Shown here in pieces: positions 35,201 to 62,036 of a stretch of 64,000 nt of DNA (the stretch's first letter is position 1; every line of letters begins with the position of its first letter). The notes beneath the pieces were generated by a model, which saw only the letters and a program-made list of their open reading frames with translations, ran no database searches and was not told the origin of the DNA. The DNA comes from a virus, in the IMG/VR virus record IMGVR_UViG_3300040771_000124, positions 1-64,000 of that record. The stretch is one strand, 5' to 3'. The translations under genes were made by a program, and so were the position numbers.

Positions 35201-35250
35201 ACACCAGTTGCTTGATCAAGTAAGGTCTGAAAGGAATCAAAGGTGGGCAT
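23221..35250 (-). CDS. Giant virion RNA polymerase (N4 gp50-like), 4009 aa, with SLOG and HExxH segments
   Basis: The single-subunit RNA polymerase core spans about residues 1530-2630. Motif A is EADGISNGPINAMM (D2087). Motif B has R2195, K2199 and Y2207 in DRGLTKNPLTITLYGSG, with the R+4K+8Y spacing of T7 and N4. Motif C is KIFDGMN (D2482), and a TxxGR-like stretch FNMSRVSRLQMLGKY lies near 1943-1957. In N4 this polymerase is packaged, ejected with the DNA, and transcribes early genes from hairpin promoters on single-stranded DNA. N-terminal to the core lies a SLOG (YpsA/DprA-like) domain (about 1250-1420, FTYAGIGSRQTP and MSGNAKGADQ). C-terminal to it lies HELIH (2741-2745), a metallopeptidase-like motif. 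The remaining regions are largely unassigned. At 4009 residues it exceeds N4's 3500. ATG 35250 follows TTAGGTG; a GTG nine bases upstream is possible. Confidence 0.95.
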   Translation of the reverse strand: MPTFDSFQTLLDQATGVQPATPTDTKTDVLDRAGQIKKNQVAQASARKQEAMGPGVDSAYNIALSKLSSLGTLGRSDKENDLREMTPGQLYQKYGDQAGTLIKQVAQGTNAVMDTMNTPDRNAGQVAYDGATDIASGFGNALGGIAALGVGTVSSRGGAAISRELEEATRLNAAYQSDELRVRKQLAEDKNALAGRDNVEQRATDISNGDSELIAGLKSIGRETVNAVSIAGSDPAVLGSGVSNAVGSLLAAGPVSKGVSGLAGLAKLGDIGSKIATPVAIGAMESGGSYTQTVNDVMGRSHDQLLAESEDYRELVKTMSPDDAKLELANSTALKAAALTAPAAIAAGKLVSKFEGAPLSTMIRKAPGYVLKEPVEEGIQGASGQLAQNLAIQGSVDENQDLAEGVGRQAGEGALYGLGMTAVMGAPSGVVQAVGLAGKGTLAAGKAALGMMADRVDKQLQANKEASPLADKTVLAAATEAQATAGVEAPVMRQAVEETDATPEQKAEANSYIDSLVAANTYDVEADATPELLKPIMGDVKNRVEAIQRVAQYVNTVEEGSPAQMEAGVYLYDLVNGYQKLINSDPEALQKVPQDHPARTIVGQYVGLMDSLGKTPKVMDAIGKIQSALEKRAAKAVEITDEMLETPEGQKAVNDVINVAILAPEKGNLETTERVLNQVSRGKLQISPEQKAALDTSVAMLRAVAAADKEAQALGETDPVSLNISSVEGEKGPSLTQHAKGIMSAWKAGDRNTAAARLVEFHNFAKGMSNKLGAINTHFAAGDPKAVGVGYKIYVGGNLKDSPNVWRVYPNNVGSIKMAQKVGREAKMLADVYNNLVTAFPDLKGDHLDFIPLDPRLGIPAEEFVANHGKTTTPAEDAKTDTKAVPSGANDTRIPAGVSSLSNAVLATRLGNTNTNDPRYEIYQAEMDRREDAATLAEQQVAEKIAKAKEKAAIEETPKVVEKSPAVEKEAKPADKPAVTPVEEEVTSLASELEQVGGLAQFLGVRNTGVEPGAVPTLQQITDSLAGLLKALSEGAVTKQALASLLSWVDTSQEADAKRMERATYKKTDAKGEALPAEQVEANKAKYAERVALKAGTPRQYLTMQVAEELIEVLEAYLQNSDLAPDAPIFKLLEAQKRILKEYRFGAGTLVKDGGSPYNGLKNYQAVEKALEGIDIPVAWRETGVIEADVQALLAEEIKKLNPTMQAVTLAKVAVEAQPQPTTVSKAEPTETGSKTPEFDKLPSYDENNPSFTYAGIGSRQTPQAIQDLMTTLAERLSELGFTLMSGNAKGADQAFEAGVGKNSKEIFLVKDATDTTRAIAKEIHPSPNSLGDYALDLMARNTNQLFGKYLKLPVDFVLAWTPDGLEKSADRSIKSGGTGQAIDMASRKGIPVFNLATPDGLARFEAHIQKLESAAAAEGKAKPVEVIIVEESLEDSDSLIDFDAAMQEATVRDDAPMFMLEDTTTEAPAAPVVPTSVDMTQKLDVEMDEVPLTKEELDVPIMEAPIDDSGEGVAALFPRIMGVIKGVFSTSYKLPKVQKTRTIGTETPISFLRSALSNSANFTNLIGSSPKGKYDAKTAAEYGNLLDRAEEIVEKLKQNLANKLATDYKKGAKGTTIRELALGLKQIKTAKGVVYDPFRAADTKSMGITEQLNNTLEYNPELLEGAVLAGIQWFIDSDTRSDNLDEADVASMTGIDRAFVSSSMVDAMNTGTSLLDAKAALSSKILNYWGLSKENSGPIGYQSGVPEAIAGEIMRTFKEFGWLNADYYGVTKGGQFVKYDADGKAPLEMVKTLIQIRTEPLSKDSAVRAYPNALDMAVLIEPEEKTIIGDEGELAVSPTQMRNPDVKNTPQQLKTIANEQNTPYFLNLPMVNLFTAMGIDELKEAFVQVDTKNTLMNKNHRMSVEGQTQALASAFQSLTDTANRVDGYAEGGPLDQVPIRYAFNMSRVSRLQMLGKYTPQSNKLIREAIMPTRSVLDLTNAKDLFRFQLGLAQALGIKVHHKMPSAIKKDLAKRLDALAPTVQILESWVEKMGGLPTSLTPTMISNFKEAGIALTPVALHALVEKARYNKGMSLNAFNTAIYVEADGISNGPINAMMLFTVGGFTAQWLKTIAKGGMFIGHDRMTMNEHFTTTDAVDLYKTTANIHLKKMATLRKKLLKVAPDVAGQMDQLLVLMDLFMGSDMSFKEGVLTIDRGLTKNPLTITLYGSGAKGIAGNLVQSLTDALYERMSQTIEATSNQGMSPAEAMFGKQSSSLEEAQEKYAKFEKAFEALTTKVAVLNEDVGYALESVPETKRSEKESSLIEFTLSQQELSALRNNMHLLFVTPLTYAIKDTVGDSLLETTKLLRKATQVQSIFLAHAFKAELAKVLLEKGKDPLWNRNDFLTVEEVNKIKASIAHLAPNIVTEDQVFSIATGLVSPVGATTFGSALDGSFRSDPYLHAPKNAGVSGIPYMTIGAGDGLMMQLISTYSDAIEGTLKIFDGMNMPLDKIEEGSRQANAAVFESWSRNPLKAVYESYLAFTKVADTETLFEEMRPELTLALIGFTKEPVSYKRIMSEFNALPNMLNWAQQSIEARHRTVKKVNLSVDQMAAVGEPHVNKGTVVLDNSSYEAMEAQINVIYEEELADINKAERVDRTLNAELLLLTESHASGVEVLPASRLGELTTQMPKTQAAVMKEIIDTLAAEGYRIVFGGPEQIAKFNDAEGLYGNGGNSSEGLQGYTNIDSKVIYLHNNTTETFTHELIHAATFQAVLAHYLGTGTRRASMAVLRIEELMNQFLDLESSLIQVNSDVRDSYADAKAAIEDYLLDDTPGSKAAALNEFMAWTLANESLANIAKNTTATKFARIREAVLSFLKQLFNIKQEVGKDMLSNLLFNSTILIRSQPTVKERFTRTVLMQNSIYGDNDRLVSINESLNKTIGQYLKEKVHPNKVDATVALQTGIMQSYRVSQSFMAHGFDMNMQEASTFNTIVATLATEAKIDANAMATAQKLYVHAMKNLSYVDFMADPESTDPNVEALAREKFDVLSGKYLVAKDGLGRSTLLPAFLALATVNNEFRAVLAKVPVPKNTHNNAGTLDALLENTGNRLTGKLSNRMSGISKNSTNTQEAIDDLNTHIGNIIETRETFFDQVASKSGGLIDRSNEIVTNGMSLLSRKLITLAKKSEKPGTNKVLKFAAQASTGLAAVLDEEIAGAVADNLQGAINKTNMWTPVREMLGEFIGRTDSNANVYDMIKAVLTTVQQTRQQYREHLPVLIREKFSRELSSEEWGGLHRVLAKGDITALRDNYTNAELLKLMVSPSAVNKAIDDLQNQLKNTDSANYALLDEKMRQLAQFMVDGVPQKALLRNATAISRLLMTGVKSGFTSPASVKQIDSLVSLYALQNQSKDDMASLRTLAQDENAGLTFVLSYLDGQRKGEASKEATAAARLNVYKGYIPSQSNSESSIQVFDDSKYSELVAKSFERIGDYVGSSVESNRNRGYYYLPVASRSTFEQGIIQNVRETIGGVDATTGQTVAQTAGVIANPIAVRRILSRIKSDTNVESLMPVFDADGDVVAFERSLNPAMMERLGTESDLSKMLGVWRGRQVEESFARNYNETLINHLGAMLDKDLAESANNINEYVDLNKTKDPVLMKAVSLFSPATKKYAEQVFHGKFMVRKDMLNDVLGYHAATVGDFWTGNGRWSPETQKAVRNIAVSVFGNAAYRKLVTAESVLQNVVSDARVLIVIKSVIVPMANLLSNVYQLISRGVPLASITKGMGKKVAEIEAYTHARLREIEAEAELRAASGNAILERRLKTELQSIKDSYTRMSIWPLIKAGEFSGISDAGLLRADVDLTSGRLQAYIEQAAAKLPGSAATVGRYALVTKDTALFQGLQKAVEYGDFLAKAILYDDLTQRKGLSEAAALARITEEFVNYSRLSGRFRGALENNGILWFYNFKLRIVKIALSTIRNNPVHALLATVAPAPTTFGSVGMPTSDNFFTKLLEGTLDNSVGPGQALDSLSLNPWVNLTQ

Positions 35251-35305
35251 ACATAGCACCTAAATAGAGGTAAGTTGTAGGTAGGATACCTGAACCAATA
35301 GAAAC

Positions 35306-49149: not shown

Positions 49150-50586
49150 TTAGTCGTCAACTTGGGGAAGTAGCTCAGGATGTTGTAAGCACAATGCCAA
49201 TGCCTCCAGGATCTCCCCTTGTTCAAATCCGTAAACCTCAAAGCCAACCGGGTTAGTAGTAAAGGCACCCCGCATTTCATCAAGGTTATCCGGGTCTGTG
49301 TACTGCAAAGGAATCAATGCAAGCAGCAACCGGCGAATCATGTAGCGAGCTTTAGTGTCATCGTAACCACCAAGAGCACTGAAGATAACCCCTTTCAAAG
49401 CTAGGGAGATGTCGTGCTGACTTGGGTGCGTGTACTTAGGATCAAGGTGGCTTGATGGGCTGAGAGGGATACCTTGCGTCCAACCTGCAGGTCTCCAATC
49501 GTTAGGAACACCGCCTGCCGTTGGGTTAGCCACCAACCAGTTGTATAACCAGTCTCCAAAACGACTAACCGTAAGCAGCAGTTTTTCCTTATTCTCAGCA
49601 GAAACCAATGAGGTTTCTGCAGCCTCAGCAAGAGTACGTCCCATTGAGTCATAGGCACGATACTGCCAGCCATCCCACGCAGGGTTGCCATCAGGACCAT
49701 CCCAAACCCAAGTATCAATCTCACCGTTTTGCTCACAATCCCACAATGCTTGTAGGTAAATGTGCATCCACGGACCAACCAGTCCTTGTGGACTACGTTG
49801 AGTAAACTGGTTTTGAGACTCCAGCATAAAGTCCAACATGCCTGCTAATTGCGTGTTGTCTCCTGAAGCGACCCAAGGAGTGCCAGATTGGTAGCCAGCA
49901 ATTAACGGACCACGGTAAGGTAGTACAGCCAAGTTTGAACGAGGGCCATTTAGCTGCAGACCGAAAGGCAATGCTCCAAGGTATTTGATTTCTTTACGCT
50001 CACCGTTCAACAACTCAACATCACCCACCTTTAACGAGTGTGCGTTAGGGCTGTTATCCAGAATGGAGACCATACGGATGTCCCCAACGGTTGTACCTAC
50101 AGGAGAGCGGCCAGCAATGTAAGCAATGCTGATTGTCTGTGCTACTACCGGGTCATCCCCGTGTACTCCTTCTGCCCCACTAAACTGGAATGCCTGAATC
50201 CTCCCAGGAGTAGGATCAGTTGGTGGGGTGCCCGTCATGTCCTGCACAGAATGCAACACAAACTGGGACCATGCCCAACCACGCTCAGTGACCTTTGTTT
50301 GCATTGGGCAAGGAGCAGCCCAAAGCCAATTATCAGCGTCTTTGAGAATAAACAGCATCTCAGAGGTACTGGCATAAGAGACTTTAGGGGGTTTGGTAAT
50401 TTCAAATGCAGGGCTAACCATATCAAAAGTAATACCAAACCCAGCTTGAGCATTCGGAATACTGAATGACTCGCACAGAACAGTTGCTGTACCTACGTCC
50501 CCAGGTATCCGAACCAAGCTTCGGGTTACCCCGTCGTTAAAGTCATAGATGGACTGACCTGGGAACCAAGTGTTAAGGGAACTCAT
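49150..50586 (-). CDS. Tail/appendage-region protein, 478 aa
   Basis: I do not recognise a named family. The N-terminal 270 residues are beta-rich (SLVRIPGDVGTATVLCESFS; GRIQAFQFSGAEGVHGDDPV). The C-terminal 200 are Trp-rich and helical (GPWMHIYLQALWDCEQNGEI; DTWVWDGPDGNPAWDGWQYR; VSRFGDWLYNWLVAN), a composition reminiscent of helical-toroid glycosidase or carbohydrate-binding modules. Acidic pairs next to Trp (WDGPDG, WDGWQ) would suit sugar binding. The gene overlaps the SGNH tail protein gene by four bases, so the two products are probably used together in a host-recognition structure. The assignment is contextual. Confidence 0.65.
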   Translation of the reverse strand: MSSLNTWFPGQSIYDFNDGVTRSLVRIPGDVGTATVLCESFSIPNAQAGFGITFDMVSPAFEITKPPKVSYASTSEMLFILKDADNWLWAAPCPMQTKVTERGWAWSQFVLHSVQDMTGTPPTDPTPGRIQAFQFSGAEGVHGDDPVVAQTISIAYIAGRSPVGTTVGDIRMVSILDNSPNAHSLKVGDVELLNGERKEIKYLGALPFGLQLNGPRSNLAVLPYRGPLIAGYQSGTPWVASGDNTQLAGMLDFMLESQNQFTQRSPQGLVGPWMHIYLQALWDCEQNGEIDTWVWDGPDGNPAWDGWQYRAYDSMGRTLAEAAETSLVSAENKEKLLLTVSRFGDWLYNWLVANPTAGGVPNDWRPAGWTQGIPLSPSSHLDPKYTHPSQHDISLALKGVIFSALGGYDDTKARYMIRRLLLALIPLQYTDPDNLDEMRGAFTTNPVGFEVYGFEQGEILEALALCLQHPELLPQVDD

Positions 50587-53500
50587 GTCAAAGAACCTCC
50601 TATGATTTTACGAACGCTCGGGTTCTTTATGATGATTGTTGCTTGGGGACCAATCTGCGAGGCATCAAACGAAAACTCGTAATGAAGCTCCCAGTAGTGT
50701 GCGTTCTCTGATGGTAACGGAGTAGGCACCACAAGTGCAGGCGAGTGCATCTTTATAACCCGATCTTCAGTAGGAAGACGGCAGTAATCCATATCCGAAG
50801 GTGGCCAGAAGAACGGCTGATTCCCGTAAGAAGTTACCTTAGTACCGTAGCTGACCCCAATCTGGTTCTGGTAACAGGCCAGAGTTTGGTGCATAGCAAA
50901 ACATGTGTTGTTCATCCCAGACACAATGACATCGCATTCAGCACTCAAACGATCTCCTGGGGAGATGATTGTGTTGGGTACTGCCAGTGGATTAGGCAAG
51001 TTCGCATCAGGACCGTTGTACCCATAGTTATCCCACACACCATGCTGACGCTTAGGCATCTGAGCCACAAGAATAAAGCCCTGGTTCTTGTGTCCTGTTA
51101 CGGGCATGTTGACCACAATACGCAGCGAAGGAGTTCCTTCGTGAACAATTGGGGTAACTGTTACACCACCCGGTGCCCAATTACTGTCTTGCATGTACGC
51201 AGCCATGTTTGGAAATTCACCAACCAAGTCTGAGAAAATGTAGGACATAAAGTTGGAGTACGTGCCACCAACACCCATACCAATTGGGATGTCTTCAGCA
51301 TTAGAACAACGCCAGAATTTCCAGTTGTCAGGCACCTTACCGAACTGGTAACCGTTATGCAGAGTACCCACTTTCACTTGTGGACCGAGACCGGTTGCCC
51401 AACCAATGTCTGACATTGCCCACGAAGCACTGTTCGTAGCCGTATCAAATTGGGTGAAAGCAAACGTCGGGTTGGTTACCAAGTTTGGACCCAAAGTAAG
51501 AGGACCTAGTTTTCCTTCCTCACGAGCAGGTACGCCAGCAGCAATCATGGCAGCAGCAAGGACTTTACCCATTGCATAAGCGCCAGCTGCGGTAGGGTGC
51601 AGGCCATCGTTGGTGTACAACAAACCTGGGGCATCTGGACGGAAGTTACCCACAGTATCAGCACCTAGTGGGTCCACTAAGTTAGATATGTGGCCAGCAG
51701 GGTCGATACCATTAGGACCTACAAAGCTATCCCAGAAATCTACCAAGAAGATGTTAGGGGGCTGGTCAATGTTGATCCAGTCACGAATCCCTTGGTTAAT
51801 TTCCTGCAAGCGAGTAAGGATAGTCGCCTGTTGTTCCAACGGATACCCAGCCAAATAGAAGCGAGTACGGGGCAAAATCGTACCTAAGAAGACCCACTTA
51901 CCGTTTTTAGCAATATCAGTAGCAGCCCGTTTGATGTTGCTCAAAATGAGCGGTGCCGGATCGTTTGCTGACAGATCGTTAGTACCACCAAGCATGTAGC
52001 AAATATCAAAACTAGACAGGTTATTCAAAGCACCGTACATCGGCCCCATTGTCTCAAAGGTGTTGCTACCCAGAAACTGAGCCTCTTCCCACCATGTAGC
52101 CACTTTAGAACTGGCAACAGCAAACGAAGTACCTGAGTTGGCACCTGTCAAGTTAGGCTGAATACCGTGCTCAAGCACAGTACGGTGACCTAAGATCTGC
52201 TCAGCAATTACCCACCAACCTGCATAGCCGTTACCGTATACCTCATAACGGTTTGGTCCTGGCTGCTTAGGAATGTAAGCCGTATTTAGGTGAGTAATTG
52301 AGTCACCAACGTCAGCACCACGACGCCCAGGGAAAGGTACAGCAGCGTACGCAGGTACAACCCACTCAGCAGGCCCGTCAATCCAAACACCAGATTTCTC
52401 CCCAAGAGAGTCCCCAGGAATTTGTTGAAATTGCTTAAATTGGCTAATGCTAATTTCCTGTACATCAGAAGCAGGCCCAATATGTAAATTGGTACTGTAA
52501 GAAAGACCTGCCTCACTTTGAATAGTTACGCTTACTACCTGTTCTACAGAAGACTTAACGTCGAAAGAAACAGAAGACCCAGTATCGTAAGTGAGGTACA
52601 GAGGTTTGTTTTCAAAAACAAGACCATAGCGCACAGCCTCACCAGTACTGATGACTGCGTTCTCCGAAGGGAGATCAAAAGTTACATAACCGTCGGGTGT
52701 ACGGCTAGCGTAGTACTTAGTGCTAGGGGATACGGCATCCCAATTGGTCGAAGGGTCATCTATGTTTTCACGACCGTAAGCATAAGAGTAGGTCAGTGGA
52801 AAGTTGTTATGAGGCCCCAACGGACTGGCTTGGAATATGCGAGTAGTGTTCGATTCCTGCCCACAGGTAGTGACAAAAACCTTCATCATTTCATCGTAAG
52901 CAACGGCCCACATTGGATTCGTTGGTTCCAGATCTACACCCAACTTGAAAGCGTCAATGAACCAATGGATACCATCAGCAGCCGTGGATACTTCTTGGTC
53001 TGCCAACTTACGCCACATAGGCCATGCTTCATACAGCTCACCATAGCCGATAGCAACGTCAGGAATACTCACACAATAGCTGACACCGATTACGCCATTT
53101 ATGGCGGTCTTTAGCTGAATCTTCCCTGGTTCGCCATCGTCATGTTTTCCTGCAGGAATGGCCGGTTGACCAAAGCTACCACCGCGTTGAGCACCAAATA
53201 CCTTGTTGCCCCCAGCGTCAATGTAGTAGTCAATCTCAACACGACTACCTTCGGTCAAATCCGCGAATACGTTCTTCCAAACAAACTTGGCATCTTCAGA
53301 GACTGCTTGATAAACAATAGCTGCAGGTGGAGTTAGTTGACCAACACCGTTAGTGAAAGTCACTGCAGCTTCTGGATCACGTCCGTAGATGTAACCACTT
53401 AACGCGAGGTCACCGCTTGCTTGAAGGGGACCCCGTGCGTTAAATACAGCACCACCGTTACAAATCCAAGAGTGGTGCCAACCATTGTCGTCAGCATCTT

Positions 53501-53732
53501 CAGGACGCACCCCTTTGAAGAAACCATTGATGGCTCCTTCATAAAGAAACTTACCGTAAGCCAGCATTGCAGGATCTTGTGTTGCTGCAGCTGCCCGCAT
53601 AATCCCACGCATTAAAATAGAGACACCCTCACTAGAAGCAGTGCCGGGTGGCGTGTAGCCACCCAACGCTCCAGAGTCCGGCATCTGATTATTGAGGACT
53701 AAGCCCTCAGTTGTAATTAGAGGTGGGATCAT
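50583..53732 (-). CDS. Tail protein with SGNH/GDSL esterase domain, 1049 aa
   Basis: A 1049-residue protein. The N-terminal 450 residues include a helical, Trp-rich part (GYGELYEAWPMWRKLADQEV) and beta-sandwich-like segments. Residues about 470-725 form an SGNH hydrolase: block I GADVGDSITH (Ser478), block III LGGTND, and block V TNDGLHP (Asp709, His712). This is the catalytic set of GDSL esterases that remove acyl groups from polysaccharides. A GKLGPLTLGPNLVTNPTF junction leads to a C-terminal beta-rich module similar in layout to that of the 1145-aa tail protein. Probable role: deacetylation of a surface polysaccharide during adsorption. The substrate is not readable from sequence. Confidence 0.82.
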   Translation of the reverse strand: MIPPLITTEGLVLNNQMPDSGALGGYTPPGTASSEGVSILMRGIMRAAAATQDPAMLAYGKFLYEGAINGFFKGVRPEDADDNGWHHSWICNGGAVFNARGPLQASGDLALSGYIYGRDPEAAVTFTNGVGQLTPPAAIVYQAVSEDAKFVWKNVFADLTEGSRVEIDYYIDAGGNKVFGAQRGGSFGQPAIPAGKHDDGEPGKIQLKTAINGVIGVSYCVSIPDVAIGYGELYEAWPMWRKLADQEVSTAADGIHWFIDAFKLGVDLEPTNPMWAVAYDEMMKVFVTTCGQESNTTRIFQASPLGPHNNFPLTYSYAYGRENIDDPSTNWDAVSPSTKYYASRTPDGYVTFDLPSENAVISTGEAVRYGLVFENKPLYLTYDTGSSVSFDVKSSVEQVVSVTIQSEAGLSYSTNLHIGPASDVQEISISQFKQFQQIPGDSLGEKSGVWIDGPAEWVVPAYAAVPFPGRRGADVGDSITHLNTAYIPKQPGPNRYEVYGNGYAGWWVIAEQILGHRTVLEHGIQPNLTGANSGTSFAVASSKVATWWEEAQFLGSNTFETMGPMYGALNNLSSFDICYMLGGTNDLSANDPAPLILSNIKRAATDIAKNGKWVFLGTILPRTRFYLAGYPLEQQATILTRLQEINQGIRDWINIDQPPNIFLVDFWDSFVGPNGIDPAGHISNLVDPLGADTVGNFRPDAPGLLYTNDGLHPTAAGAYAMGKVLAAAMIAAGVPAREEGKLGPLTLGPNLVTNPTFAFTQFDTATNSASWAMSDIGWATGLGPQVKVGTLHNGYQFGKVPDNWKFWRCSNAEDIPIGMGVGGTYSNFMSYIFSDLVGEFPNMAAYMQDSNWAPGGVTVTPIVHEGTPSLRIVVNMPVTGHKNQGFILVAQMPKRQHGVWDNYGYNGPDANLPNPLAVPNTIISPGDRLSAECDVIVSGMNNTCFAMHQTLACYQNQIGVSYGTKVTSYGNQPFFWPPSDMDYCRLPTEDRVIKMHSPALVVPTPLPSENAHYWELHYEFSFDASQIGPQATIIIKNPSVRKIIGGSLT

Positions 53733-53748: not shown

Positions 53749-55203
53749 TTAGACTAGAGTACCGGGAATGGACAAGAATACTGTAATTCCTACTGCCCAA
53801 CCCATACGGTTTTCTAAGTAGACCTTACCTGCAGCGACGGAAATTGTAATTTTTCCAGCTGCTCCTGTAGTTCCCGAAAGAATCCCGGTCAACACACCAC
53901 CTCCCCCCGCCAAAGTAGGGTAAATTGTGGGAGTGCCTGCTGTGTTAAAAGCAAACTGAGTAACTGGTAGGGAACCAAGTGCGGCTAGGTAAACCATTCC
54001 CCAGCCTGCAGAGTTAGCTGCAATGTTCCAAGAAATCACACCATCATTTGGTACTGTAAAGTTACCGCTGATGTTACTGGCCCCACCGCCGCCGCCACCG
54101 GCTGCAGGAGTCTGCCAAGTAGCATCCCCATCAGCAGCACTGGCTTTAGCTAGTACTTGACCAGTTGCTCCGCCAACAGGGATTGCAGAACCAGTCGCAC
54201 CTTTGAGACTGGCAACAATTGCACCCCAAGCACCTGCTACTTTAGGACCGTAATAGTCACCGTTAGAACGTAAGTAGAAATCCCCGTCTACCCCAGTTCC
54301 ACCAGCAGGAACAGTAGTACCGGTCAGCCATTTGGCACCAGTAGCACCAGCTATACCTGCTATGCCCGCTATACCCTGTATCCCTCGGGTCGATATACCT
54401 GCAGGCCATATTCCACCTGCTTTAGGACCGTAAATCAGCTGAGCTGCTACATCTAATGCGTAGTCACCGTTTACGCCAGTAGCACCTGAAGGAGCACCTG
54501 TAGTAGTCAATACAGTATTGCCGTTCGTGCCATTAGTACCGTTTGTACCATTGGTGCCTGCAGTGCCGTTAGTGCCTGCAGATCCTGTAATAGCACTCAG
54601 CAAAACCAAGTCTGCCCAGCTGCCGCCTACTTGACGCCATTGAACAGCAGTCGCTGTTTTCTGCAACTCAACAGATAACCCATTAGCACCTGCTGGTGCT
54701 GCCAACTCAATCCAATTAGCCGTGTTGTTTCTTGGTAGTACCGACGACACGTAAGGCACCGTAGCATTCAGTACCCACATAGAAGTTGGGTTGACTGAGC
54801 CAGTAGAGAAAACGTAGTCGCCTGGGTTAAACGTAGCTGCAGCCCAGTTCCCTTTGTTAGTAAGGCCGGTGCCGGTATCCCCTTTATCACCTTTGATGTC
54901 CGTCAAGAGAAGGAGGTTATTCCAACCAACATCCCCAACGTATCGCCATTGGACATGAGTTGCTGTTTTTTGTAGCTCAACTTGTCGCCCATCAGCACCA
55001 GCAACACCGTTTGTACCAGCAGTACCGTTTGTGCCATTTGTGCCGGGAGCACCGGCTGGCACTGTGGCTATAATGAAAGCAGCCAAAGCAGCTTTACTTA
55101 TACGAACCGTTTCAAAAGCACCCCCCACACCATCAATAATGGCCATTAACTCAAACAAGTCAGTGTGGGTTGTCTTCAATTGGTACGTGTTTAACTTGCT
55201 CAT
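53749..55203 (-). CDS. Collagen-like tail fibre protein, 484 aa
   Basis: The N-terminal 50 residues (LNTYQLKTTHTDLFELMAII) probably anchor the fibre. Three Gly-x-y collagen-like runs follow (GTNGTNGTAGTNGVAG at about 55-72; GTNGTAGTNGTNGTNG at about 209-228; and GIQGIAGIAGIAGATG at about 275-290). Repeated QKTATAVQWR/QKTATHVQWR units lie between them, and a Gly-rich hinge (about 370) leads to a beta-rich C-terminal domain. This is the design of a trimeric phage fibre with repeated blocks. The run of short repeats at about 54,500-54,600 is a site where length could vary by slippage. It overlaps the GH5 tail protein gene by four bases (ATGA). Receptor specificity is unknown. Confidence 0.82.
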   Translation of the reverse strand: MSKLNTYQLKTTHTDLFELMAIIDGVGGAFETVRISKAALAAFIIATVPAGAPGTNGTNGTAGTNGVAGADGRQVELQKTATHVQWRYVGDVGWNNLLLLTDIKGDKGDTGTGLTNKGNWAAATFNPGDYVFSTGSVNPTSMWVLNATVPYVSSVLPRNNTANWIELAAPAGANGLSVELQKTATAVQWRQVGGSWADLVLLSAITGSAGTNGTAGTNGTNGTNGTNGNTVLTTTGAPSGATGVNGDYALDVAAQLIYGPKAGGIWPAGISTRGIQGIAGIAGIAGATGAKWLTGTTVPAGGTGVDGDFYLRSNGDYYGPKVAGAWGAIVASLKGATGSAIPVGGATGQVLAKASAADGDATWQTPAAGGGGGGASNISGNFTVPNDGVISWNIAANSAGWGMVYLAALGSLPVTQFAFNTAGTPTIYPTLAGGGGVLTGILSGTTGAAGKITISVAAGKVYLENRMGWAVGITVFLSIPGTLV

Positions 55204-58200
55204 GCGGATGCCTCAATAGGGGAGTTAAGCGAATCTGTCATTACTGATCCTGCAGTATCAGTCAACATAGCTGGTGTGACGACAGGGCCTGTAGTTACTC
55301 CAGGGGACGGGTCGATATTATTGTAAGGGAACGACCCGGTAATCACAGTAAGTTGTGAGTAATCGATCGAGACTGGTAGCGCGTTATCTGGCACGTCTGG
55401 GTTAATCGACATTAAGTTAAGAGCCAAACGGTTAGCACCGGCTGGGGCAGTAAACTCAACAAAGATGGTGCCTTCCTCTATTTCGGCACCTTGCGGACCA
55501 AAAGCAACATACAAATTATTTGGGTAACTTGACCAAGATTGGTCAGTAACCATCAACAGCAAGCCTACATGCCATGCAGCAAACTCCATGTTGGTGCCGC
55601 CCTTGACCTTAGCATCCCAGCGAATTTTGACAGCCAGGGTATGCTTCTGCCCGGCAACAATTGGGATTACTGCAAGGGTTGCGGTCTTGGTGACGTTTGC
55701 CCCAACCACAGTTTGATTAGCCTCTCGGGTAATCCGCTGCCAGTTCCCAGCCACTTCGCTTGGAATCTGCTCCCCAGTATATCCCGCAGGTAGTGTGAGG
55801 TTTGTGGAAACACCATTAGAACCACCAGTAAACAGCGGGTTAGGGCAAAGGTTGCTGCCACCAACAGTCGTAGCCAAACCAAGCTTCCCGTCAATAGGGA
55901 TGCCAGCTAAGCACTTACTGTCAATCAGGTACTTACCAAGAACCGTATACCCGTAGTTACTGAAATGCAGGCCGTCAGCATTCATTACCCCGGCTTTACC
56001 ACGGTAAGACCCAGGTACACGTAACGCTTCAAACGCATCAAACAATGGGATACCAGTCTCCAAATGGTAGTCCTTAACTGCTTGGTTCCACACGGCCATA
56101 TTGGCATCTTGTCCAGTTGTGTCGTTACGTGGAGGAATCGTCCACAGCACTGGGTAGATGTTACGAGCAACAAGAGCAGTACATATTTGCTGGATATACG
56201 TAAAGGCAGAGATGCCCCCGTAAATACTGTTAGTACCAGAAGCAACCACACAGACTTTTGGTGGAGGAACCATGTCCATGACCTTGGACAGCTGCAGCTC
56301 AAGAGACTGCTGCGGCGTACTACCAGACACAGCCACGTTGCCTCGATGACGGAACACTTGGTTACCATAGAAGCAGGCTTTCTGCATCCAGCCATTGCTG
56401 AGATACAGACCACCCTCGGTAAGCGAGTCACCTACCGCAGTAATGCCGTAAGCATTACTTGGCAGAGTAATACTAACCAACGGACCTGTTGGATCTGGAT
56501 CTACGGGTGTGCCTATGTTGGAAGCAAAACCACTCACCAAGACAGTAAGAATACTTCCTGTGCTTGGGGTAATGCTCAATGTCCCAGTAAACGAACCCTC
56601 AGTGCTTGGAGTGAAGGTAACTGTAATAGTCGAGCTACTACCGGGAAGCACGGTCACATTCTGTGGGGAGACTGTATATCCAGCCCCACTTACTGTGTTC
56701 AATACCGAGATCGCAAAAGCTGAGTTGTTGTACACAGTCAATGTTTTCTGGGAAACGGTGCCCGCAGAAGTTTCAGCAAAACTCAATTGAGTTCCTGAAA
56801 GAGTCAGCGGTGCGACAACAACCGGAGTAATAAAGGTATCCAGATAAGGCAGCTTAAATTGTTGAGCAGCTCCCCAAGTACCCGCAGGTTGTTGTCCTAC
56901 CAGACCGTCTGGGTCACCACCAGGAGGCCACGCCCAGTAAGCAAAACCAACAGCATGCTGCTCACAGTACGCACCCAAGGTATCCAACCACTGCTCATCT
57001 AACGCAAGGTCTTGGGCACTGTAAGCAGAGCCACCACCAGTGATAGGGTCACCACCAATTCGGAGGTAAGAACCGAACTCACCAATCCAAACAGGGGCGA
57101 TATTCTCTTCAACCAAGTAACCCCACTGTCGGCTCCAAACATCTGGCATGTTGGCTGGGAAAGCCAAGCCAGCGTAAGTATTCCCGACTCGTGTTGCAGG
57201 AGTGAACCAAGGTTGCAAGGCAACGCCCTGTAGGTACGCACCGTACTCATGGGGGGAGTAGACAACCTTGTTAGGTACGTTTAGTACCACTGGTTCCATA
57301 CGAGCTTCATCCAGCTTACCCGACCACCAAGTGCTCCATGTGTATTTGCCTTCAAGGCTTGCTGCATCAGTCTCATGACCAACAGGGGTGTGGTCAATGT
57401 TGCCTGTGTTTCCCTCACAGATAACAAGTACATCGGGGTTTACAGCGTGAATGGCATTACCAGCCCGCTCGTAGAAACCGAGAATACCGTCTACCGGGTT
57501 ACGGTCCCATACGCAGTTATGCGGCTCGTTGATGATGTCGAAACCACACACAACAGGGCGGTTCTTATAGCGATTGGCCAAGAAGACATGAGCAGCAATT
57601 GCCTGAGCTTCGTTGCGAGCTTCTCGACGAATGCCACCAGTTTGGCCAGGATCATTAGGATTAGTAGTGGTGTACCACTTACCGTGGGTAGCCAACACGT
57701 TGTCGTTGTCAGGAGCTAGAGTGTGCATATCAAAGACAATGCGTAGCTTTAGGGCCTCACACCAATCAACAAACAGATCCAAGATCTGAATAGTTGTCTT
57801 CACGTTCTGAGGGTTTTCTCCCACAGTAGAGACAAGAAACTCAGGGTTAGCATCTACGTTAATGTAGGTAGAGTTCCAATCCCCACCAATGGTGTTTGGC
57901 TTAGTACCCGCCCACGTAACGTCCTGAGAAAAGAGAAGGCGAATAGAGTCGAAGCCAAGGCGTTTGATCTCTTCCAGCATACCTTCCTTGAGGACGCCGT
58001 TAATGCTTTTGGTACGGAATGGACGGGTCCACGCACCACTCGGTACACCAATCTGCTCAAAGCCGTACCAGTTCACAGAACGCAGCTGAACAACAGAGCC
58101 TGCACCCTTGTTGTCTTTCAACTTGCTGCCATCAGCCGAGAGGTAAGTAAGAGCAGACAGGCTTGCAGCCGTAGCCACACCACTCATAGGTATCTCATGG

Positions 58201-58637
58201 GCAGTGTTCTTGGCGTTTGAGTACACCAACAGACTGCCTGTCTTAGTACCTACGCTGGTAGGAGAGAAACGTAAGACAAGGGGTGCATTACCACCTGCAG
58301 CAATCTCTGTCGGGTAAGCCCCAACAATACTGAAACCAATAGGCACGGCCACACTACTAATCAGTAGGGGTAGCTCACCCGGATTACGTAGGGTAACCGT
58401 AAGGTTCGGAGAAATGTTCCCAACTACCGTAGATGGGAAAATGATGTTGGTAGGGGTAATACCAAATTCCGGAGCAGGCACATTCTCAAAACTCTCCCCA
58501 CGTAAAGAAAGAGTGTGCGGACTGCTTGGGGTATTGCTCGTAAAGCTAAGCGACCCAGTACGTACCCCAGTAGCTATGGGATTAAACCGTACCTTTACGT
58601 CAACTGAACCAAACGGCGGAATAGTAATTTCAGTCAT
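55200..58637 (-). CDS. Tail protein with GH5 cellulase-like and SGNH esterase domains, 1145 aa
   Basis: Domain order: the second half of an Ig-like (ASPM/SPD-2/Hydin, choice-of-anchor-D) domain (1-50), a full Ig-like domain (51-150), and a GH5 glycosidase (about 155-610) with acid/base Glu371 in FDIINEPHN, nucleophile Glu520 in VWIGEFGSY and a PHEYG stretch. A third Ig-like domain follows (about 620-710). Next is an SGNH hydrolase (725-900) with Ser738 in VGDSLTEGG, SGTNS, and Asp888/His891 in NADGLHFS, and finally a C-terminal beta-sandwich. GH5 enzymes mainly cut beta-1,4-glucans and mannans, and SGNH enzymes remove acetyl groups, so the protein looks like a two-step depolymerase. It starts at an ATGA overlap with the upstream gene, in the middle of an Ig-like fold. 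Confidence 0.88.
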   Translation of the reverse strand: MTEITIPPFGSVDVKVRFNPIATGVRTGSLSFTSNTPSSPHTLSLRGESFENVPAPEFGITPTNIIFPSTVVGNISPNLTVTLRNPGELPLLISSVAVPIGFSIVGAYPTEIAAGGNAPLVLRFSPTSVGTKTGSLLVYSNAKNTAHEIPMSGVATAASLSALTYLSADGSKLKDNKGAGSVVQLRSVNWYGFEQIGVPSGAWTRPFRTKSINGVLKEGMLEEIKRLGFDSIRLLFSQDVTWAGTKPNTIGGDWNSTYINVDANPEFLVSTVGENPQNVKTTIQILDLFVDWCEALKLRIVFDMHTLAPDNDNVLATHGKWYTTTNPNDPGQTGGIRREARNEAQAIAAHVFLANRYKNRPVVCGFDIINEPHNCVWDRNPVDGILGFYERAGNAIHAVNPDVLVICEGNTGNIDHTPVGHETDAASLEGKYTWSTWWSGKLDEARMEPVVLNVPNKVVYSPHEYGAYLQGVALQPWFTPATRVGNTYAGLAFPANMPDVWSRQWGYLVEENIAPVWIGEFGSYLRIGGDPITGGGSAYSAQDLALDEQWLDTLGAYCEQHAVGFAYWAWPPGGDPDGLVGQQPAGTWGAAQQFKLPYLDTFITPVVVAPLTLSGTQLSFAETSAGTVSQKTLTVYNNSAFAISVLNTVSGAGYTVSPQNVTVLPGSSSTITVTFTPSTEGSFTGTLSITPSTGSILTVLVSGFASNIGTPVDPDPTGPLVSITLPSNAYGITAVGDSLTEGGLYLSNGWMQKACFYGNQVFRHRGNVAVSGSTPQQSLELQLSKVMDMVPPPKVCVVASGTNSIYGGISAFTYIQQICTALVARNIYPVLWTIPPRNDTTGQDANMAVWNQAVKDYHLETGIPLFDAFEALRVPGSYRGKAGVMNADGLHFSNYGYTVLGKYLIDSKCLAGIPIDGKLGLATTVGGSNLCPNPLFTGGSNGVSTNLTLPAGYTGEQIPSEVAGNWQRITREANQTVVGANVTKTATLAVIPIVAGQKHTLAVKIRWDAKVKGGTNMEFAAWHVGLLLMVTDQSWSSYPNNLYVAFGPQGAEIEEGTIFVEFTAPAGANRLALNLMSINPDVPDNALPVSIDYSQLTVITGSFPYNNIDPSPGVTTGPVVTPAMLTDTAGSVMTDSLNSPIEASA

Positions 58638-59284
58638 GGGATTATCTCGAAATCACCGGTCACAGTGAGGTTGTCTATTATCAGGGGTTGGTTACCCACG
58701 TTCGATAAACGGATTGTGGTAACCCCAGAGGTGCTACCTAATTCAACGGGATCTACGTATGACACTTCAGTGAGAGACATAGATAGGGCAGGACCGGTTG
58801 ATGTAATCGCCGGTAGTGTCGCCCGTTGAAGAAATTCCCACAGACCCGTAAGCATCTTGTTAGTGAGACCCAGGTAATCCAACGAAGAGGCAGCTATTAA
58901 GCTAACCCGCTCTTTCGGGAGGTTCTCAAACTCAATGTCGAAGTAGCCAGTAAAATTTCCCTCAATTTGGGGGGCAAATACGATCTCAATTTTGAAATCA
59001 CGATCTGCCTTAATTTCGGTGGGAAGCACTGTGGGGAAAGTAAACGCAACCCCATTCAAGCTAATGGACTTAACAACCAGGGTTTGAAAACCCGTATTGG
59101 TGATTGTAAATTCCAAAGGAGTGACCGAGCCGAGTACCCTAGTACCGTAGTCCAAAACTCGTGGACTAATGTCAACAAGGAAAGGTGGTTTACCACCCAC
59201 CCATAAGGGGATCACTCGGCTTGAGTGATTCCTTATAGGGTTCTCTTTAGAGAACTCGGTTAGCGACATATTGTCTTCAGACAT
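58634..59284 (-). CDS. Tail-associated Ig-like protein, 216 aa, possibly the N-terminal part of the GH5 tail protein
   Basis: The 216-residue protein contains one full Ig-like ASPM/SPD-2/Hydin-type domain (about 30-130; VLDYGTRVLGSVTPLEFTIT, then IVFAPQIEGNFTGYFDIEF). It then carries only the first half of a second one, ending LTVTGDFEIIP at the stop. The missing strands (TITIPPFGSVDVKVRFNPI-like) are the first residues of the next protein, shifted by one base. The two genes may therefore be one protein joined by a -1 shift, or a natural split, or a sequencing error. The N-terminal 25 residues probably attach to the virion neck or tail. Position suggests the N4 gp66 (appendage) region. Confidence 0.72.
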   Translation of the reverse strand: MSEDNMSLTEFSKENPIRNHSSRVIPLWVGGKPPFLVDISPRVLDYGTRVLGSVTPLEFTITNTGFQTLVVKSISLNGVAFTFPTVLPTEIKADRDFKIEIVFAPQIEGNFTGYFDIEFENLPKERVSLIAASSLDYLGLTNKMLTGLWEFLQRATLPAITSTGPALSMSLTEVSYVDPVELGSTSGVTTIRLSNVGNQPLIIDNLTVTGDFEIIP

Positions 59285-59286
59285 GA

Positions 59287-59706
59287 TTACACCCCGTAGG
59301 TCACATACCAGCGAATGCCTGAACCAATAAGGCTAGTGGGGGCGCTCATCTTTAGGCTGATCTTCAGAGCATTCTCTAAAATGTAGGAGGAGAAATACTC
59401 TTCCCCATAAAGGGCACCGTCAGACGCAACAAGGATTATTGAGCTGGCAACAACCATATTCTGGGCTACGCCTTCAGGCAGCGGGATAGTGACCAATGCC
59501 CCCAGTTGCCCGGACACACCCTCAACAACTTGTGAGTTACGCAGCTGAGTGGATACCAGTAACAGGTCTTCCATGTGGTCAGCAACGTATTGAAGAAGCT
59601 CAAGATTTTTAGAAACCAGGGCTACCTTGTCGTAGGCAGTGCCGATCATTTTATCCACTAGAGGGGCAGAGCCGCCCATTGGGTCAGTGCTTGGACGAAA
59701 AGACAT
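59287..59706 (-). CDS. Hypothetical neck/appendage-region protein, 139 aa
   Basis: A 139-residue protein with a helical first half (YDKVALVSKNLELLQYVADH; LLLVSTQLRN) and a beta-rich second half (LGALVTIPLPEGVAQNMVVA; GIRWYVTYGV). It lies between the putative adaptor and the tail Ig-like genes, with a one-base overlap upstream and two bases to the next start. The order suggests it sits at the fibre attachment or neck; similar small proteins precede fibres in other podoviruses. No named family is recognised. Confidence 0.65.
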   Translation of the reverse strand: MSFRPSTDPMGGSAPLVDKMIGTAYDKVALVSKNLELLQYVADHMEDLLLVSTQLRNSQVVEGVSGQLGALVTIPLPEGVAQNMVVASSIILVASDGALYGEEYFSSYILENALKISLKMSAPTSLIGSGIRWYVTYGV

Positions 59707-60407
59707 TATTTCCAGCCTCCATTATAAAAGCGAGTATTGCTAGTGGAAACTGTGGCACTAACCAAATCATGCTCGATAACTTCGCCGCATACACTTTCGT
59801 AAAAGGCGTAGTGTTCTTGAGCTTTGCTGGATGCCTCAGCAGTATTGATGTGACTATACACCTTGTACGCAATGTAAGCAGTTAGGGCAGTCACTAATGT
59901 ATCAGGCAGGGAGATCGGCTGGTTCAACTTGGTGTGATCCAAAGTCTCGTGCATTGTTTGGTACACGATACTAAGAGCAGCCCCTTCTTGAGGACGTGGT
60001 ACTTGCAGCACCTTTGCCTGGGGAGTGAATACAGACTCAGGGTGATTGTCGTTGTTTAGCGGTAGACGCTCACCATACGTATTGTATACAGCTGTGACCT
60101 TGATTACCTCATCAACAAAAGGTTCAAGAGGAAGGTCCAAGATGTAGCATGTCTTTTCCAGCTTTGGTTCATGCTGTCTGGAGAAGCGAGGCAGCAAGTG
60201 GTAGTTCGTAATGTGGCTGTGCATCTCAACCAGGACATCATTCTCTTTGAGAGGGAACCGTGAATGTAGACGAGTCAGCCCCTCGTTTGTATAGAGAACA
60301 ATCTTGGGGTGGTATGCCTCAAGGATCTCACCTGAACCTTCTCCAGACATGGCGAGGTTGGAGAGTTCCCCGTAAGACAGCTTTTGAAAAAGTTCTGCGA
60401 TGTCCAT
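59706..60407 (-). CDS. Head-tail connector-type protein (N4 gp67 position), 233 aa
   Basis: A 233-residue alpha/beta protein. The N-terminal DIAELFQKLSYGELSNLAMS is followed by strands (PKIVLYTNEGLTRLHSRFPL; NDVLVEMHSHITNYHLLP). A helical C-terminal half (LPDTLVTALTAYIAYKVYSH; AEASSKAQEHYAFYESVCGE) resembles podoviral gp4/gp11-type connectors (tail-completion proteins). Its place directly after the terminase matches N4 gp67, a virion protein. ATG 60407 follows GTGAGGTTTT. The role as connector is inferred from layout. Confidence 0.7.
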   Translation of the reverse strand: MDIAELFQKLSYGELSNLAMSGEGSGEILEAYHPKIVLYTNEGLTRLHSRFPLKENDVLVEMHSHITNYHLLPRFSRQHEPKLEKTCYILDLPLEPFVDEVIKVTAVYNTYGERLPLNNDNHPESVFTPQAKVLQVPRPQEGAALSIVYQTMHETLDHTKLNQPISLPDTLVTALTAYIAYKVYSHINTAEASSKAQEHYAFYESVCGEVIEHDLVSATVSTSNTRFYNGGWK

Positions 60408-60413: not shown

Positions 60414-62036
60414 TCACACGATATAGGAAGACAGGCCGGAAATAGTGGGCTGCTTATCATCATCATCCCACATATTTAATTCAGCTTCAGTGGTGGGAGA
60501 TGCCTGAGATGGTTTCCATGGATTGAGATAACCCAGCATAGAAATTGTATCTAAGCAGTCGTCTTTACCTTTGAGACCGCTCTTGGTAGCTAGGCGAATT
60601 TGTTCCATGAATTGTCCCACAATTACGGAGTTTTTCATCTCTTGTGGGAACCAAATTTTACGCATCTTGAACCAAGGGACTACAGTATTGAATCGCGTCA
60701 ACTTGTCAGTTGATGGCCGTATGCCCGGAGCACCACTCTTTTCACTCGATGCAAAGTTGAACCAAATGTTCCGACTCATCATCTCTCGCTGCAGCCACTG
60801 AATAAAAGCACCCTGCTGACCGGTGATCTCAACACCAACTTGCTGGGGGTTGTACTTCAGTACATGAGCAAACAAGGCATCGATTGTCTTATCCATCGTC
60901 TGCTTCTCACAGATACCGTCTACCCAGAACCAGTCCCCGTTGGCGTTGTATGCCCAGTCACTGATTACGTTGAAGTCGGCTGTCTGCTTGGCAGAGGTAG
61001 CAAAGTCAGTCGTCATATAGAAGTTGTAGATCTCTTTGTTCTTCAACAAGTCAGCACGGCTGTACCAACCAATCTCCTCATCCTGAACAAGACGTTCTTC
61101 TTCAGAGCTGATACGTAGCATTAGTTCTTGATAGAAGGCAGAGAGCTTGCCTGTTTTTACAGCCATGTCGTACTGAGCTGCCACGTAGTCGTAGCTAAAG
61201 CGATCGTCCCATGCCCCAACAAACTCTGCTTTCTCGCAGGGGAATTTCTCGCACACGGGCCACACGTTCACGTCCCATGCACCGGATTCCACAGCTTCGA
61301 TCAGAATGTCTTCTGTATTAAAGGGTGTACCGTTGAACACGACTTTACGTCGGGTAGGATCGAGTGCGTGGTTTACACCTTTATATACGGTGTCCTTGAT
61401 GGCAGACATTGCTGCCTTCGACTTGGCGTCATCATCACTCACGAGGTCATCGAGAATGGCAATGACAGGACGCTTACCAAAGATCTTCGTACCACGAAGA
61501 CCGGTCTTGGCACCAAACATTTTGCAGCCAAGACGGTGGCCTTCACGGTTTCTGAACTCAAGGTAGTTATCCGTGAAGGTGGCATCGGGGATCCAGTACT
61601 GCAGGAACTCGCTGTTGTTGTACCGGAACTCAATGTTCTTACGTGCAGATTTCACACCGTTGTCCATCGAGTCAGACACGTAGATCATGCCTTCCACTTT
61701 TCCGAAGTTGGGGATGTACCCAAAGTGGGCGCAAAACAACACGAAGTACTCCATAAAGAGAGTCGTCTTTGCAGCCCCTCGAAAGCACAGGTTGGCTACG
61801 TAGTCGTTGACTGCTCGGGTGATTGGATTGACCTCAACAATCTTATCCAACATCTTTAGGTGAACTGGTGGGGTCTTGTGACTTTCCCCTTCCTGACCGT
61901 TGACCATCTTGATCCAGTTCATAAAGGTCAGGGCAAAAGTAGTGGGTATGTAGGTGCTGGAATTGAGTGAGGCGTAATCCACCTGGTTCAGCCAGTCATC
62001 TAGCTTCTGTTTGATCAAACCAGTTTCGATGGCCAT
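60414..62036 (-). CDS. terL: Terminase large subunit (N4 gp68-like), 540 aa
   Basis: The 540-residue packaging motor has a Walker A-type motif CFRGAAKTTL (K90), a Walker B region VIAILDDLVSDDD (about 190-200), and a nuclease domain starting at YMTTDFATS (about 339-347) with later acidic residues (GLKGKDDCLDTISML). It translocates DNA into the prohead and cuts concatemers. The sequence is typical of N4-like large terminases, with RGAAKTT in place of the usual GxGKT/S. ATG 62036 follows GAGGGGGAG. It overlaps a small gene upstream by 22 bases. Confidence 0.92.
   Translation of the reverse strand: MAIETGLIKQKLDDWLNQVDYASLNSSTYIPTTFALTFMNWIKMVNGQEGESHKTPPVHLKMLDKIVEVNPITRAVNDYVANLCFRGAAKTTLFMEYFVLFCAHFGYIPNFGKVEGMIYVSDSMDNGVKSARKNIEFRYNNSEFLQYWIPDATFTDNYLEFRNREGHRLGCKMFGAKTGLRGTKIFGKRPVIAILDDLVSDDDAKSKAAMSAIKDTVYKGVNHALDPTRRKVVFNGTPFNTEDILIEAVESGAWDVNVWPVCEKFPCEKAEFVGAWDDRFSYDYVAAQYDMAVKTGKLSAFYQELMLRISSEEERLVQDEEIGWYSRADLLKNKEIYNFYMTTDFATSAKQTADFNVISDWAYNANGDWFWVDGICEKQTMDKTIDALFAHVLKYNPQQVGVEITGQQGAFIQWLQREMMSRNIWFNFASSEKSGAPGIRPSTDKLTRFNTVVPWFKMRKIWFPQEMKNSVIVGQFMEQIRLATKSGLKGKDDCLDTISMLGYLNPWKPSQASPTTEAELNMWDDDDKQPTISGLSSYIV

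What the first reader, a model, noticed from the sequence alone, without database searches (positions are those of the whole stretch)
55200..58637. Tail protein combining GH5 cellulase-like and SGNH esterase domains: a possible acetylated-cellulose depolymerase
Seen: GH5-type catalytic residues (Glu371 in NEP, Glu520 in GEFGS) and a complete SGNH set (Ser738, Asp888, His891) in one 1145-residue tail protein with Ig-like spacers. Known: GH5 contains endoglucanases, SGNH enzymes include polysaccharide acetylesterases, and some Pseudomonas biofilms (Wss system of P. fluorescens SBW25) contain partially acetylated cellulose. Inference: the phage deacetylates and cuts a beta-glucan biofilm matrix to reach the cell. 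I know of no described phage depolymerase of this combination. A mannan, a plant-derived glucan or another exopolysaccharide is also possible.
Basis: partly seen in the sequence, partly recalled or inferred. Interest (0 to 1): 0.87.

Follow-up and report, generated by a model that had tools for sequence, protein, structure and literature searches.

The report
Phage tail cellulase with deacetylase domain
A virus of (probably) Pseudomonas carries on its tail a single protein that joins a cellulose-cutting enzyme to a putative acetyl-removing enzyme, next to a second acetyl-remover and a split cellulase-like barrel, which suggests that it chews through the acetylated cellulose that coats its host; this is a new version of a trick already known from a fire-blight phage.

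Summary
The 1145-residue ORF (55200-58637, minus) has a GH5 domain (Pfam E 5e-28) and an SGNH domain (4e-14). All 12 checked active-site residues of endocellulase E1 are kept. Its best structural matches are endo-beta-1,4-glucanases. The virus is a schitovirus closest to Pseudomonas phages, and the gene sits in the variable tail locus where Erwinia phage S6 keeps its CMC-active GH5 gp095 and a GH48; S6 needs host cellulose as receptor. So "cellulase tail enzyme" is well supported but has precedent. The acetylated-cellulose idea gains indirect support: SGNH domains occur in all 8 records of this GH5's clade, including the phage of P. fluorescens SBW25, an acetylated-cellulose producer, but in only 2 of 31 other GH5 records. 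The fusion recurs in at least three other viral contigs. I read the cassette as a virion-borne deacetylase-plus-cellulase kit for acetylated bacterial cellulose. Cellulose as target is likely; acetyl groups on that same cellulose as the SGNH substrate are plausible but unproven. New variant of a known kind.

The parts
55200..58637 (-). GH5-SGNH tail protein, 1145 aa
   Evidence: GH5 and SGNH active-site residues intact
56925..58019 (-). GH5 cellulase domain (aa 207-571), catalytic E371/E520
   Evidence: Pfam PF00150; E1 alignment; AF2 model with Foldseek top hit 1ece, TMt 0.83
56565..56822 (-). ASH / choice-of-anchor-D Ig-like domain between GH5 and SGNH (aa 606-691)
   Evidence: Pfam PF15780 E 9.7e-19; NCBIfam NF012200
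55944..56438 (-). SGNH hydrolase domain 1 (aa 734-898), GDSL736-739, G772, N803, D888, H891
   Evidence: Pfam PF13472; conserved in L012 and phage JWF
55338..55886 (-). C-terminal beta-rich domain after SGNH 1 (about aa 918-1100), also in phage JWF; carbohydrate-binding role only guessed
   Evidence: Conserved across L012, L050, JWF; low-confidence strands in the model
58634..59284 (-). 216-aa ASH / anchor-D protein; its last Ig-like domain is cut by an ATGA stop/start overlap with the GH5-SGNH gene
   Evidence: same overlap in L012, L013, L014
53749..55203 (-). Collagen-like fibre protein, 484 aa
   Evidence: Collagen repeat and phage tail matches; homologues in the same place in L012, L050, L052, Skulduggery
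50583..53732 (-). 1049-aa tail protein: N-half of phrog_2871 toroid (aa 6-441, E35 and D253) + SGNH domain 2 (aa about 475-723) + C-terminal beta-rich part
   Evidence: 43% to SKUL_20 over whole length; hhalign to phrog_2871 99.6%; PF13472
51564..52310 (-). SGNH hydrolase domain 2 (GDSIT, GGTND, DGLH)
49150..50586 (-). 478-aa tail protein: C-half of the phrog_2871 (alpha/alpha)6 toroid
   Evidence: 52% to SKUL_21; hhalign to phrog_2871 columns 475-920, 99.7%
59287..59706 (-). 139-aa appendage/tail N-terminal-like protein, homologous to the start of Kuerle tail-spike and S6 gp096
59706..60407 (-). 30-kDa virion protein, border of the variable tail locus
   Evidence: phrog_2125; synteny with S6 gp097 and Zuri
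60414..62036 (-). Terminase large subunit (lineage marker)
   Evidence: phrog_38; tree

Best explanation
This is a tail-borne cellulose-degrading cassette of a Pseudomonas-type schitovirus, adapted to acetylated cellulose. ASH / anchor-D Ig-like domains hold the 1145-aa protein on the virion (inferred). Its SGNH domain removes O-acetyl groups from the beta-1,4-glucan (inferred), and its GH5 domain, with a complete retaining-endoglucanase active site, cuts the exposed chain (activity inferred from close homology). The two downstream genes add a second SGNH domain and the two halves of an (alpha/alpha)6 toroid that takes the place of the GH48 partner found in S6-type phages. Together they bind and clear host cellulose as a first receptor and barrier, as S6 does on Erwinia. 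Stepwise confidence: active-looking GH5 endoglucanase 0.9; target is host bacterial cellulose 0.75; at least one SGNH is an active carbohydrate O-acetylesterase 0.75; its substrate is acetyl on that same cellulose 0.5; toroid is a catalytic glucanase 0.5.
For: GH5: 12 of 12 checked E1 active-site residues kept, eight catalytic residues invariant in ten phage homologues, best PDB matches by sequence and by fold are endo-beta-1,4-glucanases. Precedent: S6 gp095 is its homologue (31%) at the same locus; it degrades carboxymethylcellulose and S6 needs host cellulose (PMC9544554). SGNH: catalytic blocks intact in both domains; SGNH present in 8/8 records of GH5 clade A (support 100/99) and 2/31 other GH5 records. 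Clade A includes Skulduggery, phage of P. fluorescens SBW25, and wssFGHI acetylates cellulose in P. fluorescens, about 14% (PMC10302187). Host: terminase and capsid nearest to phages of P. alcaligenes, P. syringae, P. putida. Toroid: phrog_2871 model (pLDDT 82) matches GH48 cellulases at Z about 26 over about 400 residues, also GH8/GH105/GH126. It lies beside GH5 as the only partner in 12 loci besides the window, where 11 others have GH48 and one has both. Vibrio phage BX-1, which has this protein, cannot infect a bcs deletion strain (PMC11792527).
Against: No activity was or could be measured. The host is inferred; the terminase clade also holds an Erwinia phage. The SGNH association is one clade, so effectively one event. 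L052 has the SGNH-toroid genes without any GH5. L015 pairs the cassette with GH18 and an alginate lyase, so the SGNH might serve another acetylated polymer. Pseudomonas phage Arace01 has an SGNH without GH5. The SGNH part of the AF2 model is low confidence. phrog_2871 shows no profile-level sequence match to GH48.
Confidence: 0.5

Rival explanations
1. The GH5 cuts host cellulose, but the SGNH domains deacetylate a different host surface polymer (O-antigen, alginate or capsule), so the cassette attacks two polymers in sequence.
For: SGNH deacetylases in phage tails often act on O-antigen or capsule (general knowledge; PMC8471582 describes a structural deacetylase, abstract seen). L015 combines GH5 with GH18 and alginate lyase. 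L052 keeps the SGNH-toroid genes without GH5. Arace01 has SGNH and no GH5.
Against: One SGNH is fused to GH5 in at least four contigs, and SGNH accompanies every clade A GH5. Fusion of GH5 and an SGNH-type esterase in CtCel5C-CE2 serves one class of beta-1,4-linked targets (PMC2661963).
Confidence: 0.3
2. Plain cellulose clearing: the GH5 works on cellulose and the SGNH domain is mainly a binding module, or acts on sparse acetyl groups without importance for infection.
For: CtCE2, an SGNH-type esterase on a GH5, also binds cellulose and potentiates its cellulase (PMC2661963). S6-type phages manage without SGNH.
Against: Catalytic residues are conserved in both SGNH families, and in JWF at 30% identity, which suggests selection for catalysis.
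Confidence: 0.1
3. The target is another beta-1,4-glucan or mannan-type polysaccharide, such as a plant polymer or a decorated exopolysaccharide, rather than host cellulose.
For: GH5 is a broad family; the toroid model also resembles GH105, GH126 and a xanthanase toroid.
Against: Closest enzymes are endocellulases and their active-site residues are all kept; S6 and probably BX-1 link this cassette type to host cellulose. A virion enzyme for plant polymers has no obvious benefit to the phage.
Confidence: 0.1

Closest known systems
Erwinia phage S6 gp095 (GH5) + gp094 (GH48); Schitoviridae, Waedenswilvirus
   Same: Same virus family, same variable locus between terminase/30-kDa gene and lysis genes, anchor-D + GH5 architecture, 31% identity over 497 aa; a second large (alpha/alpha) toroid-type gene follows
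   Different: S6 has no SGNH domain anywhere and a true GH48; the window has SGNH fused to GH5, and a split phrog_2871 toroid with a second SGNH
Pseudomonas phage Skulduggery SKUL_18-SKUL_21 (P. fluorescens SBW25)
   Same: GH5 40% identical, then fibre, SGNH-toroid gene (43%) and toroid C-half (52%) in the same order
   Different: Other phage lineage (Skulduggeryvirus); its GH5 protein lacks the C-terminal SGNH domain
Clostridium thermocellum CtCel5C-CE2 (cellulosomal GH5 endoglucanase + SGNH-type acetylesterase)
   Same: GH5 and acetylesterase in one polypeptide
   Different: Bacterial plant-cell-wall enzyme acting on acetylated glucomannan and binding cellulose; no phage anchor; sequence kinship of the esterases not tested
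Acidothermus cellulolyticus endocellulase E1 (PDB 1ece)
   Same: GH5 fold and all active-site residues checked; 30% identity in the structural alignment
   Different: E1 has no insert of clade A (aa about 307-345), no SGNH; E1 Y245 is A473 here
Achromobacter phage JWF gene PJWF_00038 (stand-alone SGNH + C-terminal domain, beside a phrog_2871 gene)
   Same: Same SGNH subfamily and C-terminal domain, 30% over 381 aa; toroid gene adjacent
   Different: No GH5 found; separate polypeptide

Membership tests
Glycoside hydrolase family 5 (clan GH-A) | Sequence match to the family profile | tested here: met
   PF00150 98.8 bits against cut-off 23.5
Glycoside hydrolase family 5 (clan GH-A) | Catalytic Glu pair and conserved R, H, N, H, Y, W | tested here: met
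   R233 H305 N370 E371 H463 Y465 E520 W568, present in all 10 phage homologues apart from R233 and similar near-invariant checks listed
Glycoside hydrolase family 5 (clan GH-A) | (beta/alpha)8 barrel | tested here: met
   AF2 GH5 part mostly pLDDT 75-95; Foldseek 1ece E 3e-27, TMt 0.83
Glycoside hydrolase family 5 (clan GH-A) | Endo-beta-1,4-glucanase activity (subfamily 1-like) | not testable with these tools
   Only homology: top matches are endoglucanases. GH5_1 label rests on my knowledge of CAZy; in the tree clade A lies outside the E1 + clade B set
SGNH/GDSL hydrolases | Blocks I, II, III and V with Ser, Gly, Asn, Asp-x-x-His | tested here: met
   GDSL 736-739, G772, N803, D888, H891; second domain GDSIT, GGTND, DGLH
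SGNH/GDSL hydrolases | SGNH fold | tested here: inconclusive
   SGNH part of AF2 model low confidence; profile matches GDSL acylhydrolase structures, E 3e-8
SGNH/GDSL hydrolases | O-acetylesterase activity on carbohydrate | not testable with these tools
   No assay possible
Schitoviridae (N4-like phages) | Giant virion RNA polymerase and N4-type terminase, portal, capsid | tested here: met
   4012-aa vRNAP (phrog_2206), portal, capsid; terminase and capsid 73-84% to schitoviruses
S6-type cellulose-dependent phages | GH5 homologue in the variable tail locus | tested here: met
   Synteny and homology
S6-type cellulose-dependent phages | Host cellulose required for infection | not testable with these tools
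   Virus known only as a contig
Glycoside hydrolase family 48 (for the split toroid) | Sequence match to GH48 profile | tested here: not met
   hhalign of phrog_2871 with phage GH48 not significant; no Pfam GH48 hit
Glycoside hydrolase family 48 (for the split toroid) | (alpha/alpha)6 toroid fold | tested here: met
   Model of relative L065: Z about 26 to GH48 over about 400 aa, but also high to GH8, GH105, GH126
CE2 esterases (CtCel5C-CE2) | Sequence membership in CE2 | not tested
   No CE2 profile compared; architecture compared through PMC2661963 only

The most novel reading that the evidence does not exclude
A virion-borne esterase-cellulase machine specific for acetylated bacterial cellulose: the SGNH domains strip the host's wss-type acetylation, which would otherwise protect cellulose from S6-type phage cellulases, while GH5 and a new split toroid family (phrog_2871) of cellulases cut it. 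Cellulose acetylation would then be an anti-phage modification and the SGNH the counter-measure.
Probability: 0.35. Interest if true: 0.8.

Novelty: new variant of a known kind. Interest (0 to 1): 0.6.

Why it matters
Phage depolymerases against capsules are common, but those against biofilm cellulose rest mainly on one case, phage S6. This cassette suggests a wider class with two partner types (GH48 or a split/unsplit phrog_2871 toroid) and an esterase-bearing branch that includes a cultured phage of P. fluorescens SBW25, the model for acetylated cellulose. That makes a clear question testable with material that exists: does cellulose acetylation protect bacteria from phages, and do some phages undo it? 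It also gives a function hypothesis for phrog_2871, a tail family present in hundreds of phage records, and enzymes of possible use against cellulose biofilms.

Tried and rejected
Single-sequence scan of viral contigs found nothing; the alignment-based scan found 38 loci. Scan of 84,980 bacterial/archaeal species genomes with the GH5-SGNH alignment gave no relative; only two seven-to-eight-residue patterns were used, so absence is weak evidence. PDB sequence searches with the neighbour proteins and with phrog_2871 profiles found no convincing hit. I first thought the downstream pair might be the S6 GH48 itself; rejected by blastp and hhalign, the resemblance being one of fold only. Foldseek of the toroid model gave scattered low-TM hits; the toroid match came from VIA-align. 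The ASH/GH5-SGNH gene boundary inside an Ig domain was considered as a sequencing error and rejected, because the same ATGA overlap occurs in L012, L013 and L014. No paper in the library joins phage, depolymerase and acetylated cellulose; most subscription papers are not held, and the primary S6 paper (Knecht et al. 2022) was read only through PMC9544554.
Full report
OBSERVATION. Pfam finds GH5 at aa 207-571 (E 5.1e-28), SGNH at 734-898 (E 3.9e-14) and Ig-like ASH domains. NCBIfam calls the latter choice-of-anchor D, the same domain reported for S6 gp095. E371, E520, S738, D888 and H891 are as stated.

THE GH5 DOMAIN. By sequence the nearest solved structures are endocellulase E1 (E 7e-36), a metagenomic endoglucanase (8fc0), and the P. 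horikoshii and X. campestris endoglucanases. An AlphaFold model (GH5 part mostly pLDDT 75-95) ranks the same enzymes first in Foldseek (1ece, E 3e-27, TMt 0.83), ahead of other GH5 enzymes. Of the E1 active-site positions I checked (list from my own knowledge of the E1 structure), 12 are identical: W203 R233 H305 N370 E371 W438 H463 Y465 Q475 W477 E520 W568; Y245 of E1 is A473. The eight catalytic residues are invariant in ten phage homologues. So an active endo-beta-1,4-glucanase is the natural reading; activity itself is not shown.

THE VIRUS AND THE LOCUS. The window is part of a 73,259-base virus record. It has a 4012-aa N4-type virion RNA polymerase and schitovirus portal and capsid. Terminase and capsid are nearest to phages of P. 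alcaligenes, P. syringae and P. putida (82-84% at best); in the terminase tree the window sits with CRC2 (P. alcaligenes), Meara (P. putida) and one Erwinia phage. Pseudomonas is therefore the likely, not certain, host. The order terminase, 30-kDa protein, short appendage protein, then large tail genes, then lysis genes and portal matches S6. Zuri and Arace01 have other large genes in the same place. This is the 'polymorphic region' of PMC9544554, where S6 keeps GH5 and GH48 and N4 a tail-spike deacetylase.

THE FUSION IS REAL AND RECURRENT. L012 encodes the whole protein at 61% identity, L013 and L014 the same protein cut at contig ends, and L050 its C-terminal part. None of the 50,697 phage records covers 80% of it.

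SGNH TRACKS ONE GH5 CLADE. In a tree of 45 GH5 domains the window, L012, L014, L015, L016, two domains of L017 and Skulduggery form a clade with 100/99 support. SGNH domains are found in all 8 records of that clade (counting L013, near-identical to L014) and in 2 of the other 31 GH5 records. Fisher p on de-duplicated counts is 8e-6, but the clade is one lineage, so this is an association, not replicated evolution. The cultured member, Skulduggery, was isolated on P. fluorescens SBW25. That organism acetylates its cellulose through wssFGHI, to about 14%; some Achromobacter have the same genes (PMC10302187). The nearest other relative of SGNH 1 is in an Achromobacter phage, JWF (30%). The S6, Klebsiella and Serratia GH5 phages examined have no SGNH.

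The 1049-aa gene (50583-53732) holds a second SGNH with intact motifs. It and the 478-aa gene (49150-50586) match SKUL_20 and SKUL_21 of Skulduggery at 43% and 52%. Profile comparison shows that together they cover the tail family phrog_2871: aa 6-441 of the first match columns 39-466 (99.6%), aa 12-472 of the second match columns 475-920 (99.7%). So a single-chain protein of other phages is here split in two, with SGNH and a beta-rich part appended to the first half. A model of an unsplit relative (PVP-SE1 gp50, L065; pLDDT 82) is an (alpha/alpha)6 toroid. VIA-align puts GH126, GH48, GH105 and GH8 enzymes at Z 25-28, with GH48 cellulases covering the most residues (about 400). A Glu at the start of helix 2 and an Asp at the start of helix 4 are invariant in 22 relatives (E68, D294) and in the window family (E35, D253), and the phage GH48 proteins have E155 and D334 in similar motifs. 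This correspondence is by motif and topology only; sequence profiles of phrog_2871 and GH48 do not match. A shared fold does not prove function.

FUNCTIONAL CLUES FOR THE TOROID. Among de-duplicated GH5 loci, 12 have phrog_2871-type genes nearby, 11 have GH48, one has both and 12 have neither or are cut; with the window that makes 13 toroid-only. In the distant loci the match covers only the C-terminal part of the toroid profile. In the phage collection as a whole only 278 of 50,697 records match the 478-aa protein. Vibrio phage BX-1, whose record OK428602 holds a full phrog_2871 protein, cannot infect a bcsGEABZC deletion strain and adsorbs poorly to a bcsE mutant; the authors state that direct proof of cellulose as receptor is lacking (PMC11792527). 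Against this, many phrog_2871 phages infect Escherichia and Salmonella, and their receptors were not examined.

MECHANISM. Shown: domains, residues, synteny, recurrence, association. Inferred: (1) anchor-D domains attach the enzyme to the virion; (2) SGNH removes O-acetyl groups; (3) GH5 cuts the glucan; (4) the toroid acts as second glucanase or binder; (5) the phage uses host cellulose as first receptor and barrier, as S6 does. The weakest link is step 2's substrate. L052 has the SGNH-toroid genes without GH5, and L015 joins GH5 with GH18 and an alginate lyase in one protein, so another acetylated polymer is a serious rival.

COMPARISON AND NOVELTY. GH5 phage cellulases are known (S6 gp095; the Skulduggery homologue was already listed in PMC9544554). 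A bacterial GH5 plus SGNH-type acetylesterase fusion is known (CtCel5C-CE2, PMC2661963). The phage fusion, the doubled SGNH, the clade association and the split GH48-like toroid seem undescribed in what I could search. I file it as a new variant of a known kind.

Noticed in passing
window 23221-35259 (minus): The 4012-aa virion RNA polymerase ORF contains a stretch (aa 1255-1417) matching phrog_768, DprA-like DNA recombination-mediator (E 3.7e-43), an unexpected domain inside a vRNAP.
   Followed up: no
window 58634-58637: An ATGA stop/start overlap splits an Ig-like ASH domain between two genes; the identical split in L012, L013 and L014 shows it is not a sequencing error. Whether the halves reassemble or a frameshift fuses them is unknown.
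   Followed up: partly
L015 8468-13090: One 1540-aa phage tail protein combines GH5, GH18 and alginate lyase (Alginate_lyase2) domains; the next genes are a second GH5 of the other clade and an SGNH protein: a multi-polymer biofilm kit.
   Followed up: partly
L056 4887-7667; L065 4001-6787; 278 phage records: phrog_2871, a tail family of unassigned function, models as an (alpha/alpha)6 toroid like GH48/GH8/GH105/GH126 enzymes with invariant Glu and Asp. It is a candidate hidden glycanase family.
   Followed up: yes
L004 5833-8986 (Achromobacter phage JWF): A stand-alone SGNH protein related to the window's lies tail-to-tail with a phrog_2871-type gene; its host genus can carry wss-type cellulose acetylation genes (PMC10302187).
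   Followed up: partly
L017 10004-13159: Phage protein with two tandem GH5 domains in one 1051-aa chain, next to an SGNH-toroid gene.
   Followed up: no
L058 7760-9337 (phage Arace01): A gene annotated as adenylosuccinate synthetase (purA) covers an SGNH domain match at record positions 66458-67006, so the annotation is probably wrong.
   Followed up: no
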